From Solirubrobacter deserti (GTDB taxonomy: Bacteria; Actinomycetota; Thermoleophilia; Solirubrobacterales; Solirubrobacteraceae): 64,000 nt of DNA. The position numbers and the translations under genes are program-made. Shown here piece by piece: positions 30,094 through 37,841 of the stretch. Numbering within the stretch: the stretch's first letter is position 1; every line of letters begins with the position of its first letter. The stretch covers positions 1 through 64,000 of the forward strand of contig NZ_JAPCID010000022.1 of the NCBI RefSeq assembly GCF_027587175.1. The letters are read 5' to 3'. The notes beneath the pieces were generated by a model. It was not told where the DNA came from. It saw only the letters and a program-made list of their open reading frames with translations, and did not search any database.

Positions 30094-31077
30094 ATGCGAT
30101 TCGAAGAGCCAGCGATCAGCGCTCAGGGCCTCGTCAAGTCGTTCGGGGACGTCCGCGCCCTCGACGGTGTCGATCTCGAGGCCGCGCCCGGCACGGTGCT
30201 GGGCGTGCTCGGCCCGAACGGGGCCGGGAAGACCACGTCCGTCCGCGTCCTCACGACGTTGCTGGAACCCGACGGCGGCCAGGCGCGCGTCGCGGGCCTG
30301 GACGTGGTCAAGGACGCGCCGCGGCTGCGGTCGCGGATCGGGCTCGCCGGCCAGTACGCGGCCGTCGACGAGAACCTGACCGGGATCGAGAACCTGACGA
30401 TGGTCGGCCGGCTGTACGGCAACAAGCGCGCGGTGGCCAAGCGGCGCGCGGCCGAGCTGCTCGAGCGCTTCTCGCTCAGCGACGCCGGCTCGCGCCCGGC
30501 GAAGACCTACAGCGGCGGCATGCGGCGCCGGCTGGACCTGGCGGCGGCGCTGGTGGCCAGCCCGCCGGTCCTCTTCCTCGACGAGCCCACCACCGGCCTG
30601 GACCCGCGCTCGCGGATCGAGCTGTGGACGGCGATCGAGGAGCTGGTCGGCGAAGGCACCACGGTGCTGCTCACCACCCAGTACCTCGAGGAGGCCGACC
30701 GGCTCGCGGACCGGATCGCGGTCATCGACCACGGCCACGTGATCGCCGAGGGCACGGCCGACGAGCTCAAGGCCCGGGTCGGCGGCCTGCGCGTGGAGGT
30801 CACGCTCACCCACGGCGCCGCGGCGTTCGCGGCCATGACCGCGCTCGAGAGCATGAGCGACGAGCCCGTGCGGGTGGACGGGCCGCTCGTGTCCGTGCAG
30901 GTGGACGAACGGGCCGGCGCGATCATGGAGGCCGCGCGCAGGCTCAGTCAGGCGGGCGTCGGGGCCGAGGACATCGCGGTCCGGCGGCCGACGCTCGACG
31001 ACGTGTTCCTGTCGCTGACCGGCCACGCGACGGTGGAAGACCAGGACGTTCCGGAGCTCGTGGAGGTCGCGGCATGA
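30094..31077 (+). CDS. DrrA-type ABC exporter ATP-binding protein
   Basis: 327 residues. Walker A GPNGAGKTT at 40-48, signature YSGGMRRRLDLA, Walker B VLFLDEPTTGLDP and a switch His region TQYLEEADRLADRIAVI are intact. The C-terminal extension of about 85 residues is typical of DrrA-type drug exporters. A Shine-Dalgarno GGGAGGA precedes the ATG. The permease overlaps by four bases. Drug or lipid export is likely; the substrate is unknown. Confidence 0.93.
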   Translation: MRFEEPAISAQGLVKSFGDVRALDGVDLEAAPGTVLGVLGPNGAGKTTSVRVLTTLLEPDGGQARVAGLDVVKDAPRLRSRIGLAGQYAAVDENLTGIENLTMVGRLYGNKRAVAKRRAAELLERFSLSDAGSRPAKTYSGGMRRRLDLAAALVASPPVLFLDEPTTGLDPRSRIELWTAIEELVGEGTTVLLTTQYLEEADRLADRIAVIDHGHVIAEGTADELKARVGGLRVEVTLTHGAAAFAAMTALESMSDEPVRVDGPLVSVQVDERAGAIMEAARRLSQAGVGAEDIAVRRPTLDDVFLSLTGHATVEDQDVPELVEVAA

Positions 31078-31832
31078 TCAACGACACGCTCACCCTCGCC
31101 GAGCGCGCGCTCGTCCGGCTCCCGCGCAACCCGGACATGCTGCTGGCCTTCACGGTCCAGCCGATCATGTTCGTGCTGCTGTTCGCGTTCGTCTTCGGCG
31201 GCGCGATCGAGACGCCCGGCTACGGCGACTACATCGATTTTCTGATCCCGGGCATGATCGTCCAGCAGATCTGCTTCGGCGGCTTCGCGACCGCGCTCGG
31301 GCTCGCCGAGGACATGACCAAGGGCCTGATCGACCGCTTCCGCTCGTTGCCCACCGCGCGCGCGTCGGTGCTCGCGGGGCGCACGCTGGCGGACGTCGCC
31401 ACCAACCTGCTGTCGGTCGCGATCCTGCTCGCGACGGGCCTGGTGATCGGCTTCCGCTTCGACGCGGGCGTGCCCGAGATCCTCGCCGGCCTCGGCCTGC
31501 TGCTGCTGTTCGGCTACGCGTTCAGCTGGATCTTCGCGCTGATCGGGATGAGCGTCTCCTCGCCCGAGGCGGCGAACGGCGTCGGCTTCACGCTGATCTT
31601 CCCGATCACGTTCATCTCGTCCGCGTTCGTGCCGGTGGCGTCGATGCCGGCGGGCCTCGAGCAGGTCGCCGAGGCGAACCCGGTCAGCGTCGTCGTGGAC
31701 GCGATCCGTGCACTGTGGCTGGGCGGGGAGATGGGCAACAGCCTGTGGCTGAGCGTCGTCTGGTGCTTCGTGCTGATCGCGGTCTTCGCGCCGCTGGCGG
31801 TGCGCAAGTACCGGATGAGCGCGTCGGCCTGA
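31074..31832 (+). CDS. DrrB-type ABC-2 transporter permease
   Basis: 252 residues, started at the ATG in ATGA; the frame is open far upstream only by chance. Six hydrophobic segments and the ABC-2 hallmark PVASMPAGLEQVAEANPVSVVVDAIRAL are seen. It makes an exporter with the preceding DrrA-like ATPase under the divergent WYL regulator. The 239 bases after it hold no recognisable gene. Confidence 0.93.
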   Translation: MINDTLTLAERALVRLPRNPDMLLAFTVQPIMFVLLFAFVFGGAIETPGYGDYIDFLIPGMIVQQICFGGFATALGLAEDMTKGLIDRFRSLPTARASVLAGRTLADVATNLLSVAILLATGLVIGFRFDAGVPEILAGLGLLLLFGYAFSWIFALIGMSVSSPEAANGVGFTLIFPITFISSAFVPVASMPAGLEQVAEANPVSVVVDAIRALWLGGEMGNSLWLSVVWCFVLIAVFAPLAVRKYRMSASA

Positions 31833-32071
31833 GCAGATCGGCGGCGCCGTCGGGGTACCGGCGGCTGCCGCCGAGCGTGCGCGGACTCGAACTCTCGGAA
31901 CCTGCATGCGGACAGGACGACTTGCGCGGTCACCCGATCGGCGTAAAGTCCGAGCGGATTTCCGTCTGTGGCGCAAACCCGGCTACAGTGCGGAGATCGA
32001 CGCTGGACCGCGCGCGGCGCGGCTCCGTCCGTCCTGGCGCTTAGCCTCCATAGATCGCCCTTTCTCGACAC

Positions 32072-33226
32072 GTGACCGCCTCCAACGACACCGCTTTCGG
32101 ATCGTTGCGCGCGGAGCAGTGGACATCGCAGTGGTACCGGGCCTTGCAGTCAGCCGAGGTGAACGCCGGGGTGGACCTGCGTGCGGAGGCCGGGCAGTCG
32201 GTCTTCAGCCTGCTGCTGGCGATCTCGGTCGCGGCACACCGCGGGCGCGACGGGCTTCCGGTGGAGCTGCGCCTGCCGCGGGAGCCGGCTGGCCTTGACC
32301 AGTTGCGGCGTTGGAACTTCCAGTCGGTCTGCGAGCTGGCCACTGGCCGTTCTCTGCGCCGGTTGGTGGCGCCGGTCGACCACGCGCTGTTCGGCACACC
32401 CGCACCAGAGCGTCCGGCGGCAAAGGTGGCCAGCGGTGTCTCCGCGTTCATCGACGAGCTGGAACGCGACGCCTTCTTCGGGCTGACCGCCTACCGGCTA
32501 TACGAGCGCGGCGCTCTAACGCGGATGATCCGATCCGAATGGGAACGGTGGCGACACCCGCTCGTTGCCCGCCTGGTGCGCCCTGTCACGGCGGACATCG
32601 CCCGCGACGTGGCACGCGTGTTGGTGCACGAGTTGCTCGCCAACGTGATCCAGCACCCGGACGCCACCATGGCGGTGGTCGGAACGTCGGTCGACTCGTC
32701 GCCCGCTGGCGAGCTTCGGCTTGTGATCGCGGTCTGGGACGATGGCGACAGCGTCGTTGACACGTTGTCGAAGATCCCGGTCGACCAGCTGCGCGCAACG
32801 GATGCCGACGACTGGGCCGCGGACATCACCGACGAGTTCATCGTCGACGCGCGCGGCTGGACCCCTGCGGCGACGTACATTCCGGCGAACTGGGTTCCGC
32901 CGGCCGGTGCTCAGGGCGGCGACCTGTTGCTGTCCGCCCTGCTTCCAGGGATCTCGCGCAAGCACGTGAGCGATGACTTCCCACAGGTTGACCGGCCGGA
33001 ACCAGTCGCGTGGGAATCGCGGCGCGGATTCGGGCTGCACGCGCTCTATCGCAGCGCCATCAACGCGTTCGGCGGCACGGTATCCGTGCGAACTAGCGAC
33101 TTCTGGCTGCGGCTGAGCGCCGGCGAGAAAGCGTTCCAGTACCGGGCGGACATCGATCGCGTCGACGAGCCGCTGTTCGGAAATCTGGTTTCGGTCGAGC
33201 TACCCCTCACGCCAGCTCGGCTCTGA
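32072..33226 (+). CDS. GHKL-fold ATPase of a three-gene accessory cassette
   Basis: 384 residues from GTG 32072. The second half carries a GHKL ATP-binding fold: N-box RVLVHELLANVIQHP with Glu187 and Asn191, G1 box WDDGDS at 222-227 and G2 box RRGFGLHAL at 317-325, closing with LVSVELPL. About 90 residues lie between G1 and G2, an unusually long lid. The N-terminal 170 residues match nothing I know; no HisKA helix or receiver is present, so this is not a normal histidine kinase. The next gene begins 3 bases after the stop. The role is inferred only as an ATP-driven switch in the cassette. Confidence 0.72.
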   Translation: MTASNDTAFGSLRAEQWTSQWYRALQSAEVNAGVDLRAEAGQSVFSLLLAISVAAHRGRDGLPVELRLPREPAGLDQLRRWNFQSVCELATGRSLRRLVAPVDHALFGTPAPERPAAKVASGVSAFIDELERDAFFGLTAYRLYERGALTRMIRSEWERWRHPLVARLVRPVTADIARDVARVLVHELLANVIQHPDATMAVVGTSVDSSPAGELRLVIAVWDDGDSVVDTLSKIPVDQLRATDADDWAADITDEFIVDARGWTPAATYIPANWVPPAGAQGGDLLLSALLPGISRKHVSDDFPQVDRPEPVAWESRRGFGLHALYRSAINAFGGTVSVRTSDFWLRLSAGEKAFQYRADIDRVDEPLFGNLVSVELPLTPARL

Positions 33227-33229
33227 CTG

Positions 33230-34960
33230 GTGGCCGACGGCGTTCGTGTCGTCGCCTGGTCGGTGGTAGTCCACCTCGGCCAGGCGGTTACTCAGCCGGT
33301 TTCGGAGAGCCGTCGCAAGGAGCACCGATGGCTCGCGCGTTCGTTGAACGGGCTGGGCGTCGACCCGTGGTTCCGACAGGACTCCGCGTACCTGAGCGTC
33401 AAGCAGCTCAGCACGGAGCCCACGCGGGTGCAGCACTTCGTCGAACCGCCGGCCGATCTGCCCGACGACGCCACGATCATCCTCGACCTCAGCGACGCCC
33501 CGTACGAGTTGCTTAACGAGCCGCTGCTCGCGGGTCTCGCCGATGGCGTCGGACGCATGCTGGCCGGTGGGCCGCGCACGATCCTGATCTTGCTTTGCAA
33601 GCTTCCGCCGGAGTCGCTGCTGTGGGAGTTCCTCGAGCGCGACACCGCCGCGGACGGGACCGGCCGCGTTGTCGTGCTGGACGACGAGGGCGCGCTGCGG
33701 AGCTTCGGTCACGGAAAGCGCGGGTTCACGCCGCTGATGCGCGACTGGCCGGGGCGCCGCCGACAGGCCAGCGGGACCGCCAACGAGCGGTTTGAGCGAC
33801 GCGTTGTGACGCGCCTCGGGCACTTCGCCACCGCAGACGGTGAGCGCTGCACACCGGCGTGGCAGGACATGCGCGGGGCAGTCGGAGAGCTCACCGAGTG
33901 CTTGTCCAATTGGATCGATCAGACCGGGGCGGCGGGCACCCGCATGATCGTGTGCGGTCCGTACTCCCGGGAGTTTCGCGTCGCGGTCGTCGCCGCGGCC
34001 GCCGCCTGCGGCGGAGACGCCGGGTTCGCGGCTACTCCCGACGAGCTCGAGGACACTGCGTCCGGCGTTGGCAACGTGCTGGCGTTCGAATACGTCCGCT
34101 CGGGCGACACTCTGGGTGACTTCCGGCGTGCGTTGCCCTCGTGGGGCGTCCCGGTGCGAACCCGCGCGCTCGCCGTCATGGCCGCGCCTGCGGCGTACGG
34201 TCTCAGGCACCCCGACCTCCAGCTCGACGTGCTGGCCGTGCGTGGGCACGAAGACGTGCAGCGGAGCGCGTGTGCACGCTGTCTCGCTTCCGCTCCGCGA
34301 CTCGAAGATCCGTCGCGTACCGATCCGGGAACCGGCATCGATGCCGCGACGATGTGGTGGATGCTCGACCGCGTTCCCTGGGGTCCTGAAGGGTACGGCC
34401 CGCCGGAGCACGCGCGCTACCCCTATATCCCCGACTTCTCGGCTGTCTTCGAGCGGTTCGGTGATTGGATCGCGCTTAAGTACGAAGAGCTGCTGAAGGG
34501 CATCGGGCTGGTGGACGACCTCGTCGTCGTTTGCGCCGCCGAGCCGGCGGTTCGCGATCTGGTCAAGCGACTCGCCTCTCGCTTCCAGAACCAGCTGGTG
34601 CCGGTCGAGATCGAACGCGATGTCATCGATGCCGTCGCTGCCGACGCGGCGCGAGCACACGGGCTGGCGTCCGCGCTCGACGACGTGAGCGACGCAAGCG
34701 AGACGATCCCCGCCTGGCGGCGTCAGCTCGCCGACCTCGGTGGCCGCGAGACGGGCACCGGGCACCGGCTCGCGGTGATTGCGCTGGACGAGTTCAACGC
34801 GTCGGGCGCAACCGCGCGCGGACTGACCACGCTGCTCGGCGCGTTCGGCGTGACGCTCGACGCCTACGTTCCCTTCGTCGACTGGTCGGGCGGGGAACAT
34901 GTTCCCGGGCGCCCAACGTGGTCGCTGTACTCGTTCTACTACCCGCGCCCCACCGGATGA
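33230..34960 (+). CDS. Protein with two phosphoribosyltransferase-like modules
   Basis: 576 residues from GTG 33230; I recognise no named family. An N-terminal region (about 75-125) reads TIILDLSDAPYELLNEPLL then RTILILLC, alternating in a way that recalls STAS-like folds. Two later segments resemble type I PRTase PRPP loops: VLAFEYVRSGDTL at 283-295 and VIALDEFNASGATARGL at 515-531, each followed by a helix and a WGV/FGV strand as in PRTases. The loops deviate from the DDxxTTGxT pattern. A CARC pair (Cys348, Cys351) might bind metal. A nucleotide-binding or nucleotide-modifying role is inferred. Confidence 0.55.
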   Translation: MADGVRVVAWSVVVHLGQAVTQPVSESRRKEHRWLARSLNGLGVDPWFRQDSAYLSVKQLSTEPTRVQHFVEPPADLPDDATIILDLSDAPYELLNEPLLAGLADGVGRMLAGGPRTILILLCKLPPESLLWEFLERDTAADGTGRVVVLDDEGALRSFGHGKRGFTPLMRDWPGRRRQASGTANERFERRVVTRLGHFATADGERCTPAWQDMRGAVGELTECLSNWIDQTGAAGTRMIVCGPYSREFRVAVVAAAAACGGDAGFAATPDELEDTASGVGNVLAFEYVRSGDTLGDFRRALPSWGVPVRTRALAVMAAPAAYGLRHPDLQLDVLAVRGHEDVQRSACARCLASAPRLEDPSRTDPGTGIDAATMWWMLDRVPWGPEGYGPPEHARYPYIPDFSAVFERFGDWIALKYEELLKGIGLVDDLVVVCAAEPAVRDLVKRLASRFQNQLVPVEIERDVIDAVAADAARAHGLASALDDVSDASETIPAWRRQLADLGGRETGTGHRLAVIALDEFNASGATARGLTTLLGAFGVTLDAYVPFVDWSGGEHVPGRPTWSLYSFYYPRPTG

Positions 34961-36048
34961 GCAGGCCCGGCCGGGTACAGATCGCACGAGCCGCCTGCTT
35001 CGAGCTCCTGGGCCGCGTCTTCGCGAACCCCGACGCGATCAAGCAGGAGATGCTTCGCCGCGACTGCTCATCCTGGATCGAGGATCTCGACGAGCCAGGG
35101 CGGGTGTGGGCCGAACACGCGCTCGCGGAGTCCTACAAACCTCCAAGACAGAGAGCCTCGTTGATGCATCCTCCGACGCCATCCGCTCCCGATCGCGAGC
35201 GCATCGACGTGCTTCTTGTCACTGTTGTTCCGAACGAGGCGGAGGCGGCTGAGATCGTGTTTGACCTCGGACGCGACCATCCGGGGGCCCGCCGGCGGGA
35301 AGACGGCCGCAGGTACCACGAGGCATCGCTCGAGACCCATCGCGCCGGTCGGCTCAATCTGGTGCTGACGAATATTGGCGAGTCCGGCAACACCACCGCG
35401 CAGGGGGCCTTGCGCTCGATGCTGCGTCTCTACGAGCCCGAGTTGGTCTTGCTCGCCGGCATCGCAGCCGGCCGGCTGGACAGCGTGAAGCTCGGTGATC
35501 TCGTGCTCCCCCGCAAAGTCTGGTACCTCGAGAAAGGGGCCAGCCTTCCCGATGAGTTCCGGCGAGAAGCCCAAGAGCGGCGACTTCCTCAGCGGCTCTA
35601 CACGCTCGTCGGAGAGCACCGAATCCGGAGAACCGGCTTTTACGAGCAACTGCAGGAGGCGCTCACACAACTCGACGACGACCAGCTACCTCCGGGCGTC
35701 AAACGAACCCACAAACCGGGATTTGACTCCGACGCGTCGGTCGTGGCCTCCGAGAAGCTCCTGCGCGACGGCTCCCTACGCAAGCTCGCCTCCGCCGAGG
35801 GCGTCGATCGGAAGATCAAGCTGGGCGATATGGAGTCGTGGGGACTCGTGCAGGCCGTCGGCAGCGGCAGCGTCGGCGAGTGGACTGGAGACAACCCGCC
35901 GGAGTGGATGGTCGTGCGTGCCGTCAGTGATTTCGGCGAGGTCGACAAGGACGACAATTGGCAGATGTTTGCCTCGGTCTGCGCACTCGTCGGCGCCAGG
36001 CATTTCTTGCAGGTGACTTACGAGCGTCGAAAGGACGCCGTTCTGTAG
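34957..36048 (+). CDS. Nucleoside-phosphorylase-fold protein with N-terminal extension
   Basis: 363 residues, starting in an ATGA overlap with the PRTase-like gene. Residues about 83-355 match the MTA/SAH nucleosidase-purine phosphorylase superfamily: VLLVTVVPNEAEA, LLAGIAAG at 165-172, LGDLVLPRKVWY, GDMES at 290-294 and AVSDFGEVDKDDNWQMFAS with catalytic-type Asp325. The first 75 residues form a separate helical, charged extension of unknown type that could couple the enzyme to a partner. In conflict systems such domains sense or cleave nucleosides; here this is inference. Confidence 0.72.
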   Translation: MSRPGRVQIARAACFELLGRVFANPDAIKQEMLRRDCSSWIEDLDEPGRVWAEHALAESYKPPRQRASLMHPPTPSAPDRERIDVLLVTVVPNEAEAAEIVFDLGRDHPGARRREDGRRYHEASLETHRAGRLNLVLTNIGESGNTTAQGALRSMLRLYEPELVLLAGIAAGRLDSVKLGDLVLPRKVWYLEKGASLPDEFRREAQERRLPQRLYTLVGEHRIRRTGFYEQLQEALTQLDDDQLPPGVKRTHKPGFDSDASVVASEKLLRDGSLRKLASAEGVDRKIKLGDMESWGLVQAVGSGSVGEWTGDNPPEWMVVRAVSDFGEVDKDDNWQMFASVCALVGARHFLQVTYERRKDAVL

Positions 36049-36051
36049 CCG

Positions 36052-36816
36052 TCAGGTGGCGAGCATGCCTCCGTCGACCGGGAGCACGATCCCGGTCACG
36101 TAGGACGAGGCGTCACTGGCGAGGAAGAGGAGCGCGGCGGTCAGCTCCTCGGCCTCGCCAGGCCGGCCCATCGGCAGCCGCTGCTGCTGGGCCTCGAGGT
36201 AGCCGTCCGGATACTGCTCGGTCATCTCGCTCGGGAAGAACCCGGGCGCCAGCGCGTTGACGCGGATGCCCTTGCGGCCCGTCCACTGCACGGCGAGGTC
36301 GCGCGTGAGGCCGATGATCGCCGCCTTGCTGGACGCGTACGCGGCCTGTGGGAGCCCGGCCGTGGTGGAGCCGAGCACCGAGCCGATGTTCACGATGCTC
36401 GAGCCGGGCGGCATCACGCGTCCGCAGGCCTGGGCCATCCAGTAGGAGCCGTTGAGGTTGACGTCGATCACCTGGCGGAACTGCTCGGGCGTCTCGCGTG
36501 TGGCCGGGTACGCGGTGCCGATGCCGGCGTTGTTGACCAGCACGTCGACCTTGCCGAACGCGGCGACGGTCTCCTCGATCACGCGCGTGCAGTCCTCGGG
36601 CCGGGACACGTCGGCGGGGACGGCGAGGCAGCGGCGGCCGAGCTGCTCGACGGCGGCGCGGGTCTCCTCCAGTCGGTCGGCGCGGCGCGCGCAGATCGCG
36701 ATGTCGGCGCCGGCCTCCGCGAGCCCGGTGGCGAACGCGGCGCCCAGCCCTGAGGAGGCGCCGGTGATGACGGCGACCTTGCCGTCCAGGCGGAAGCGGT
36801 CGAGCACGCTGGGCAT
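36052..36816 (-). CDS. SDR-family oxidoreductase (gluconate 5-dehydrogenase/FabG-like)
   Basis: 254 residues. ITGASSGLG (17-25), NNAG in VLVNNAGIG, the catalytic Ser in IVNIGSVLG and YASSK give a classical SDR; the C-terminal LPVDGGMLAT is typical of polyol or 3-oxoacyl reductases. It ends 3 bases from the end of the accessory cassette and returns to the chromosomal style of the region. The LacI-type regulator upstream on the same strand may control it. Confidence 0.92.
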   Translation of the reverse strand: MPSVLDRFRLDGKVAVITGASSGLGAAFATGLAEAGADIAICARRADRLEETRAAVEQLGRRCLAVPADVSRPEDCTRVIEETVAAFGKVDVLVNNAGIGTAYPATRETPEQFRQVIDVNLNGSYWMAQACGRVMPPGSSIVNIGSVLGSTTAGLPQAAYASSKAAIIGLTRDLAVQWTGRKGIRVNALAPGFFPSEMTEQYPDGYLEAQQQRLPMGRPGEAEELTAALLFLASDASSYVTGIVLPVDGGMLAT

Positions 36817-36828
36817 GGCTGCACGCTA

Positions 36829-36877
36829 GCGAGTTCGCGTGGCGCCACGCGGCGGCGCACCGCGGGGGCGAACTCGC
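36829..36877. repeat. Inverted repeat upstream of the SDR gene
   Basis: GCGAGTTCGC (36829-36838) and its exact complement GCGAACTCGC (36868-36877) are separated by 29 bases that contain further short palindromes (GTGGCGCCAC; CACCGCG/CGCGGTG). It occupies most of the 83-base gap between the LacI stop and the SDR start. It could be an operator for the LacI-type regulator or a terminator cluster. Confidence 0.55.
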
Positions 36878-36880
36878 GGT

Positions 36881-36900
36881 GCATCGCCCCTGGGCGATGC
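36881..36900 (-). terminator. Hairpin directly after the lacI-type gene
   Basis: GCATCGCCC (36881-36889), CT, GGGCGATGC (36892-36900): a perfect 9-bp stem abutting the regulator stop codon. It lacks a clear T-tract, so termination efficiency is uncertain. Confidence 0.45.
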
Positions 36901-37841
36901 TACGTGGTCTCTCCCTGAATGACGCGCGGCTTGATGACCACCGGCGTGGCGTCGACCTCGCGGCCCTCGATCAACGCGTGCAGCGTTCGCACCATCTCGC
37001 GGTGGCCCTCGGGCGTGCCGAGCTTGATCGTGGTCAGCCGCGGATGCGCGAGGCGGGCCGGCGGGCTGTCGTCGGTGCCGATCAACGCGACGCCGGGCGG
37101 GAGTGAGTCCCGGGCCCCGAGCGCGATCTCGTCGTTGAAGGCGTACACGGCGGTCGGCCGGCGCGCCAGCCCGCGGGCGAGCCCGTTGGCCGGCACGTCC
37201 GTGAGCGTCACCCCGAGGCGCTCCGCCGCGGCGCGCGCGCCGGCGAGGCGCTGCTCGCCCAAGGGCTGCAGCTGGCTGCCGAGCGGCGTGACCGCCAGCA
37301 CGTTCGTGTGCCCGCGTTCGGCCAGGTGCTCGATCGCGACCGCGCCGACGCTGCGCTGGTCAAGCGAGAATGACGGGACGCCCGGCTCCGGCGGCTGGCC
37401 GAGCGTGACGATCCCGCGGCAGCCGTTCGCGCGCAGCAGGTCCAGCGGCGGCAGGTCGGTGCCGGGCGCGATCAGCCCGACCGGGCGGACGCGGTCGCAC
37501 GCCTTCTGCAGCCCGTCCGGCCCGCCGGCGTGGACGAAGTGCACGAGCGGCGTGTAGCCGAGCCGGTCCAGCTCGCCGACCAGCCCGGTGAGCAGCTCTG
37601 CGACCACGGGGCCCAGCGGCCAGTTCGGCAGCGCGAAGATGACCACGGAGGTGCGGCCGGCGCGCAGTGCCGAGGCCATCGCGTTCGGCGTGTAGCCGAG
37701 CTCGCGCGCCGCCGCCAGCACGCGCTCGCGCGTCTGGTCGGACACGCGCGCGTCCACGCCGTTGAGGACGTAGGAGACCGTCGCGCGGCTCACGCCGGCG
37801 GCGGCGGCCACGTCGGCACTGGTTACGTTCGGGCGCCCCAC
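36900..37841 (-). CDS. LacI-family transcriptional regulator
   Basis: 313 residues. The N-terminal helix-turn-helix and hinge are typical (TSADVAAAAGVSRATVSYVLNG at 7-28), followed by a periplasmic-binding-protein-like ligand domain. Members respond to sugars or other small metabolites and repress catabolic genes. The likely target is the SDR gene behind it, whose upstream region carries a 10-bp inverted repeat. Confidence 0.93.
   Translation of the reverse strand: MGRPNVTSADVAAAAGVSRATVSYVLNGVDARVSDQTRERVLAAARELGYTPNAMASALRAGRTSVVIFALPNWPLGPVVAELLTGLVGELDRLGYTPLVHFVHAGGPDGLQKACDRVRPVGLIAPGTDLPPLDLLRANGCRGIVTLGQPPEPGVPSFSLDQRSVGAVAIEHLAERGHTNVLAVTPLGSQLQPLGEQRLAGARAAAERLGVTLTDVPANGLARGLARRPTAVYAFNDEIALGARDSLPPGVALIGTDDSPPARLAHPRLTTIKLGTPEGHREMVRTLHALIEGREVDATPVVIKPRVIQGETT

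What the first reader, a model, noticed from the sequence alone, without database searches (positions are those of the whole stretch)
32072..36048. Three-gene cassette: GHKL ATPase, double PRTase-like protein, nucleoside-phosphorylase-fold protein
Seen: three tightly packed genes (3-base gap, then ATGA overlap) on one strand. They encode a non-kinase GHKL ATPase with a very long lid, a 576-residue protein with two PRPP-loop-like segments (283-295; 515-531) plus a STAS-like N-terminus, and a phosphorylase-fold protein with a separate N-terminal helical extension. Known: GHKL switches, PRTase-like and MTAN/PNP-like domains recur in predicted prokaryotic conflict and stress systems acting on nucleotides. 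Inference: the cassette senses or makes a nucleotide signal and may act in phage defence. I do not recognise the exact trio.
Basis: partly seen in the sequence, partly recalled or inferred. Interest (0 to 1): 0.88.

Follow-up and report, generated by a model that had tools for sequence, protein, structure and literature searches.

The report
GHKL–double-PRTase–nucleosidase defence-like cassette
A rare, horizontally acquired three-gene unit in soil actinobacteria joins a GHKL-type ATPase and an unusual protein with two phosphoribosyltransferase domains to a nucleotide-cleaving enzyme of the kind used in bacterial immunity, and it looks like an undescribed defence system that has not yet been tested in the laboratory.

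Summary
Three tightly coupled genes (window 32072-36048) encode a GHKL ATPase with a 91-residue lid, a protein with two PRTase domains, and a PNP-fold N-glycosidase-like protein. I found seven more loci with the same gene order in diverged actinobacteria (21-33% identity); counting the window they occupy seven distinct genomic sites. PRTase domain 1 is PyrR-like (profile evidence) and domain 2 is an OPRT/APRT-like fold (predicted structure, Z 12-13; its PRPP loop is conserved in all eight loci). The third protein's PNP domain matches immune PNP effectors (PADLOC E 6e-25), while two housekeeping PNP-family proteins of the same genome do not match. The cassette has GC3 0.78-0.84 against 0.96-0.98 in flanking genes, and two congeneric genomes carry another gene at that site. 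One relative adjoins a type IIG restriction-modification system and another a PNP-NB-ARC NLR-like gene. Three loci are four-gene variants (NUDIX-TM gene, APH-like kinase-PNP fusion) whose PNP has lost its catalytic Asp. Best reading: a mobile conflict system in which the GHKL/PRTase pair senses an infection-linked nucleotide change and controls a nucleotide-destroying effector. Fold, order, mobility and effector kinship are shown; phage defence and the sensing step are inferred.

The parts
32072..33226 (+). Gene 1: N-terminal STAS-like alpha/beta domain plus GHKL ATPase with long lid (384 aa)
32630..32659 (+). GHKL N-box ELLANVIQHP (residues 187-196)
   Evidence: E and N of the box kept in six of eight loci, full box in five
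32738..32746 (+). GHKL G1 box DDG (residues 223-225)
33026..33034 (+). GHKL G2 box GFG (residues 319-321)
33230..34960 (+). Gene 2: N-terminal alpha/beta domain plus two PRTase domains (576 aa)
33872..34249 (+). PRTase domain 1, PyrR/ComF-like (about residues 215-340)
34088..34111 (+). PRPP loop 1 EYVRSGDT (residues 287-294), degraded compared with relatives (DVVNTGRT)
34313..34954 (+). PRTase domain 2, OPRT/APRT-like fold (about residues 362-575)
34787..34813 (+). PRPP loop 2 DEFNASGAT (residues 520-528); D520, E521 and T528 invariant in all eight loci
34957..36048 (+). Gene 3: N-terminal extension of about 78 residues plus PNP/MTAN-fold nucleosidase-like domain (363 aa), the predicted effector
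35236..35238 (+). E94, aligned with the catalytic N-terminal Glu of MTAN
   Evidence: alignment A9; equivalence to MTAN by motif, from general knowledge
35833..35835 (+). E293 of the ME motif
35929..35931 (+). D325 of VSD, aligned with the catalytic Asp of MTAN
31829..36053 (.). Inserted segment: homology to congeners stops at about 31828 and resumes at about 36054; lower GC3 than flanks

Best explanation
A mobile, rare actinobacterial conflict cassette, most likely anti-phage. SHOWN: conserved GHKL -> double-PRTase -> PNP order, horizontal acquisition, and membership of the PNP domain in the immune-effector branch of the PNP superfamily with its catalytic residues kept in this locus. INFERRED: the three proteins form one complex. 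The GHKL ATPase acts as an ATP-driven clamp or switch. The double PRTase binds PRPP or a nucleotide (domain 2 is the constant element) and reports an infection-linked change in nucleotide pools. The nucleosidase is then released or activated and cleaves the N-glycosidic bond of a nucleotide (ATP, by analogy with the PNP effector of Detocs), so that the cell stops growing before phage matures. In relatives with a dead nucleosidase the output has probably moved to another module (NUDIX-TM protein and APH-like kinase domain), as happens when effectors are swapped in immune systems.
For: Same order in eight loci at seven sites. Correlated divergence of the three proteins (r 0.90-0.96, exact Mantel p <= 4e-4). 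PNP domain hits the PADLOC PN-superfamily effector at 6e-25, 6e-23, 2e-22 and 7e-19 in four loci, while two housekeeping PNP-family proteins of the same genome hit nothing; it matches the PNP domain of an NB-ARC NLR-like protein at 3e-13. GC3 0.78-0.84 against 0.96-0.98, and a different gene at the same site in two congeners. Neighbours: type IIG RM plus MTase and a PD-T4-6-like kinase in L007; PNP-NB-ARC-TPR and another PNP gene in L036. Two PRTase domains. Detocs precedent for a PNP effector cleaving ATP (PMC11249213).
Against: No functional data. Five of the seven sites, the window's included, have no recognised defence genes nearby. No relatives in plasmids, phages or IMG/VR. PNP catalytic Asp is lost in four of eight loci, so nucleosidase activity cannot be the output of every member. 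GHKL motifs are degenerate in three loci, so ATPase activity is not essential everywhere either. The Mantel statistic is helped by one close pair (L008/L032).
Confidence: 0.6

Rival explanations
1. Nucleotide-messenger system: the double PRTase makes a nucleotide (base plus PRPP) or a pyrophosphorylated sugar, the GHKL protein gates it, and the PNP-like domain is the receptor (dead copies) or the eraser (live copies). NUDIX and APH-like kinase domains in the four-gene form would turn over or modify the messenger.
For: PRPP loop 2 is conserved while the PNP catalytic Asp and the GHKL motifs decay independently, as expected if the PRTase product is the constant. NUDIX and APH-like kinase domains are added in L008, L032 and L033. 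PNP domains have been proposed to generate second messengers in conflict systems (PMC7159879).
Against: No product known. Loop 1 lacks acidic residues in L035 and L036. PRTase folds also serve as pure sensors (PurR and PyrR are among the matches). The intact PNP copies resemble destructive effectors.
Confidence: 0.2
2. Accessory nucleotide-salvage or stress-metabolism operon: the nucleosidase releases bases and the PRTases recycle them, with the GHKL protein as regulator.
For: PRTase and nucleosidase are the two chemical steps of purine salvage (general knowledge); both folds are present.
Against: Degenerate catalytic residues in several loci, immune-type PNP branch, patchy presence (about 1.4% of 355 Micromonosporaceae genomes), defence neighbours in two sites, unusual extra domains.
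Confidence: 0.1
3. Toxin-antitoxin-like selfish unit in which the GHKL/PRTase pair merely neutralises the PNP toxin, without phage sensing.
For: Tight coupling and mobility.
Against: Two large partner proteins with enzymatic folds are more than an antitoxin needs; PNP is dead in four loci while the partners persist.
Confidence: 0.1

Closest known systems
Detocs (defensive two-component system with PNP effector, PMC11249213)
   Same: Three genes; a GHKL-type ATPase module upstream (from general knowledge of histidine kinases) and a PNP-domain protein as effector; the PNP effector cleaves ATP in the best-described Detocs.
   Different: No HisKA/DHp and no response-regulator (REC) domain was found in the three proteins; the middle component is a double PRTase.
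PNP-effector NLR-like (NB-ARC/TPR) and ternary conflict systems (PMC7159879, PMC8195603)
   Same: Same PNP branch; one cassette (L036) adjoins a PNP-NB-ARC-TPR gene; four-gene variants carry TCAD9-like (ternary complex associated) domains.
   Different: No STAND NTPase in the cassette; GHKL and PRTase components are not mentioned in those papers (no hits for GHKL or PRTase).
Retron type III-A PRTase effector (PMC12548924)
   Same: A PRTase-fold protein used in phage defence; weak match over the PRPP loop only (E 0.0016 and 0.005).
   Different: No reverse transcriptase among the cassette genes, and the PRTase is duplicated.
Ter-system PRTases (PMC7824862)
   Same: PRTases proposed to make a nucleotide signal in a conflict or stress system.
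   Different: No TerD/TerB/HAD partners; instead GHKL and PNP partners.
PyrR / PurR / PRPP synthetase
   Same: PRTase folds; domain 1 is closest to PyrR, domain 2 to OPRT/APRT/PurR. The tandem of two PRTase domains resembles PRPP synthetase in layout (from general knowledge).
   Different: Under 20% identity, extra N-terminal domain, gene context.

Membership tests
GHKL (Bergerat-fold) ATPase | N-box E..N, G1 DxG, G2 GxG motifs | tested here: met
   ELLAN, DDG, GFG in the window protein; HATPase_c above cut-off in P0005; degenerate in L034-L036
Type I PRTase, domain 1 | Profile similarity to PRTases and a PRPP loop | tested here: met
   PyrR 95% by hhalign, PF00156 4.6e-5 in L033; loop is degraded in the window (E287 only)
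Type I PRTase, domain 2 | PRTase fold and PRPP loop D[DE]xxx[ST]Gx[ST] | tested here: met
   Predicted fold Z 12.3-13.0 to OPRT/APRT; DEFNASGAT; PF00156 0.001 in L034
PNP/UDP phosphorylase superfamily, immune-effector branch | PNP domain matching effector models better than housekeeping enzymes do | tested here: met
   PADLOC 6e-25; two housekeeping PNP-family controls without hits
PNP/UDP phosphorylase superfamily, immune-effector branch | ATP nucleosidase activity | not testable with these tools
   catalytic residues E94, E293, D325 present
Detocs | Histidine kinase with phosphoacceptor domain plus REC-domain partner | tested here: not met
   no HisKA or Response_reg hit in any of the three proteins or their L002 relatives
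STAS / partner-switching | STAS domain with phosphorylatable DSSG serine | tested here: inconclusive
   weak STAS signal; the DSSG serine is replaced (FIDPVALL in P0005)
Retron III-A | Reverse transcriptase and msDNA | tested here: not met
   no RT among the cassette genes; no Rfam hit in 31000-37000
Anti-phage defence system | Protection against phage | not tested
   needs wet-lab work

The most novel reading that the evidence does not exclude
An immune signalling route built on phosphoribosyl transfer: the double PRTase makes or reads a PRPP-derived nucleotide messenger, gated by a GHKL ATPase and decoded by PNP-fold proteins that serve as effector or, where catalytically dead, as receptor.
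Probability: 0.2. Interest if true: 0.88.

Novelty: new variant of a known kind. Interest (0 to 1): 0.66.

Why it matters
If confirmed it would add a sensing core (GHKL plus tandem PRTase) to PNP-effector immunity. It would suggest that bacteria watch PRPP or nucleotide pools to detect infection, and it would provide a natural series of loci in which ATPase, transferase and nucleosidase activities have been lost one at a time.

Tried and rejected
No relatives in plasmids, GenBank phages or IMG/VR. Off-family hits of the middle-protein profiles were checked: 18 are PyrR and five are ComF, so 'matches' in 20 phylum genomes and 10 Micromonosporaceae genomes shrink to 2 and 5 genomes with real cassettes. 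The hits to gyrB (L003) and to G392 (L011) were set aside as not supported; the ORF at L003 is gyrB, and L011 was not examined further. The retron III-A PRTase match covers only the PRPP loop and was rejected as membership. PADLOC PDC-M60C matches only the PNP domain; genes 1-2 match no other PDC-M60 model. BrxA match to gene 1 (E 0.012) taken as chance. STAS fold for the N-termini could not be settled (two of 23 STAS picks in that test were wrong segments). AlphaFold models are of modest quality (mean pLDDT 53 and 58, two or three sequences); PRTase domain 1 is mostly under pLDDT 50 in both, so its assignment rests on sequence profiles, not on structure. VIA rows cover only about residues 362-575 of P0002 and 387-581 of P0004; other parts are barely tested. 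No sigma-70-like promoter or terminator was found.

Full report
OBSERVATION. Gene 1 has one workable start (GTG 32072; an in-frame stop lies 21 bases upstream). Pfam does not recognise genes 1 and 2 of the window itself, and finds PNP_UDP_1 below cut-off in gene 3. The assignments therefore had to come from relatives.

RELATIVES. The genome is a Solirubrobacter (L006, 100% identical over gene 1, is Solirubrobacter sp. CPCC 204708). The same order was found in an uncultured actinobacterium (L002/L007), in Micromonospora andamanensis (L008) and in four further genomes of that family carrying five cassettes (L032-L036; one genome has two). L008 and L032 share flanks, so eight loci represent seven sites. 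Identity to the window falls to 21% for the middle protein. Frequencies: 2 of 396 genomes sampled across the phylum and 5 of 355 in Micromonosporaceae, after PyrR and ComF false hits are removed.

MIDDLE PROTEIN. Six of eight members hit Pribosyltran, some in the first and some in the second half. Domain 1 aligns to PyrR with 95% probability (E 3e-8) while the N-terminal control domain scores 0.1%. All 18 unrelated genome hits of the family profile are PyrR. PDB profile hits are PRTase-fold proteins: PyrR, APRT and OPRT for domain 1, and GPRT, PurR and UMP synthase for domain 2. Domain 2 in two AlphaFold models matches OPRT/APRT at Z 12-13 over 157-175 residues. PRPP loop 2 (core [IL]DE[FM][NV][AG]x[GN]xT) is present in all eight; loop 1 keeps an acidic residue in six and loses it in L035 and L036.

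GENE 1. N-box, G1 and G2 motifs are intact in the window, L007, L008, L032 (DDG to DNG) and L033, with lids of 82-95 residues; they decay in L034-L036, which also lack G2. A STAS-like N-terminal domain is suggested, not proved.

GENE 3. The PNP domain is in the branch used by immune effectors: PADLOC PN-superfamily 6e-25 against no match for two housekeeping PNP-family proteins of the same genome; pairwise E 3e-13 with the PNP domain of an NB-ARC protein. MTAN-type catalytic residues are complete in the window, L034, L035 and L036 (Met of the ME pair is Gln in L034). The Asp is lost in L008, L032 and L033, and all are lost in L007. Thus the window is the only locus of the eight with both GHKL and PNP motif sets complete; loci with a degenerate GHKL all keep a live-looking PNP. 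L008, L032 and L033 add a NUDIX-TM gene (NUDIX 5.7e-7 in L008) and fuse the PNP-like domain to a TCAD9/APH-like kinase region. This looks like an effector swap (inference).

MOBILITY AND CONTEXT. In two congeners the ABC-transporter and SDR genes that flank the cassette are syntenic (77-87% identity) but enclose an unrelated gene for a 736-738 aa predicted secreted protein; homology breaks at about 31828 and 36054. GC3 is 0.78-0.84 in the cassette and 0.96-0.98 around it. L007 adjoins a type IIG restriction enzyme-methyltransferase (4e-240), a type II MTase (1e-182) and a kinase like PD-T4-6. L036 lies between a PNP-NB-ARC-TPR unit and another PNP gene. No recognised defence genes were noticed at the other sites, whose neighbours were mostly judged by eye.

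MECHANISM. Shown: order, folds, mobility, effector kinship. Inferred: one complex; PRTase 2 as a ligand-binding or catalytic constant core; ATP-driven control; nucleotide destruction as output. The closest functional parallel is Detocs, whose PNP effector cleaves ATP (PMC11249213), but the defining histidine-kinase and receiver domains were not found here.

NOVELTY. No paper found in the searches made describes this trio, and the two surveys of PNP-containing conflict systems that were searched mention neither GHKL nor PRTase. The library lacks many subscription papers, so absence is not proof.

Noticed in passing
L036:2969-6180 and L036:13163-14974: Three PNP-domain genes within about 11 kb in one Micromonosporaceae genome: the cassette's own, a PNP-NB-ARC gene followed by a TPR gene, and another PNP gene.
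   Followed up: partly
L008:10836-14236, L032:4095-7480, L033:4587-7835: Four-gene variant with a NUDIX protein ending in a transmembrane helix and a TCAD9/APH-like kinase fused to a PNP-like domain that has lost its catalytic Asp.
   Followed up: partly
L034:10900-12030, L035:2873-3673: Small membrane protein genes upstream of two cassettes in the same genome; the one in L034 appears frameshifted.
   Followed up: no
L007:12411-13754: Ser/Thr kinase like PD-T4-6 just after a cassette whose PNP has lost all catalytic residues; a possible alternative output.
   Followed up: no
L075:3186-5396, L076:3359-5575: Congeners carry a predicted secreted protein of 736-738 aa at the site occupied by the cassette in the window.
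   Followed up: partly
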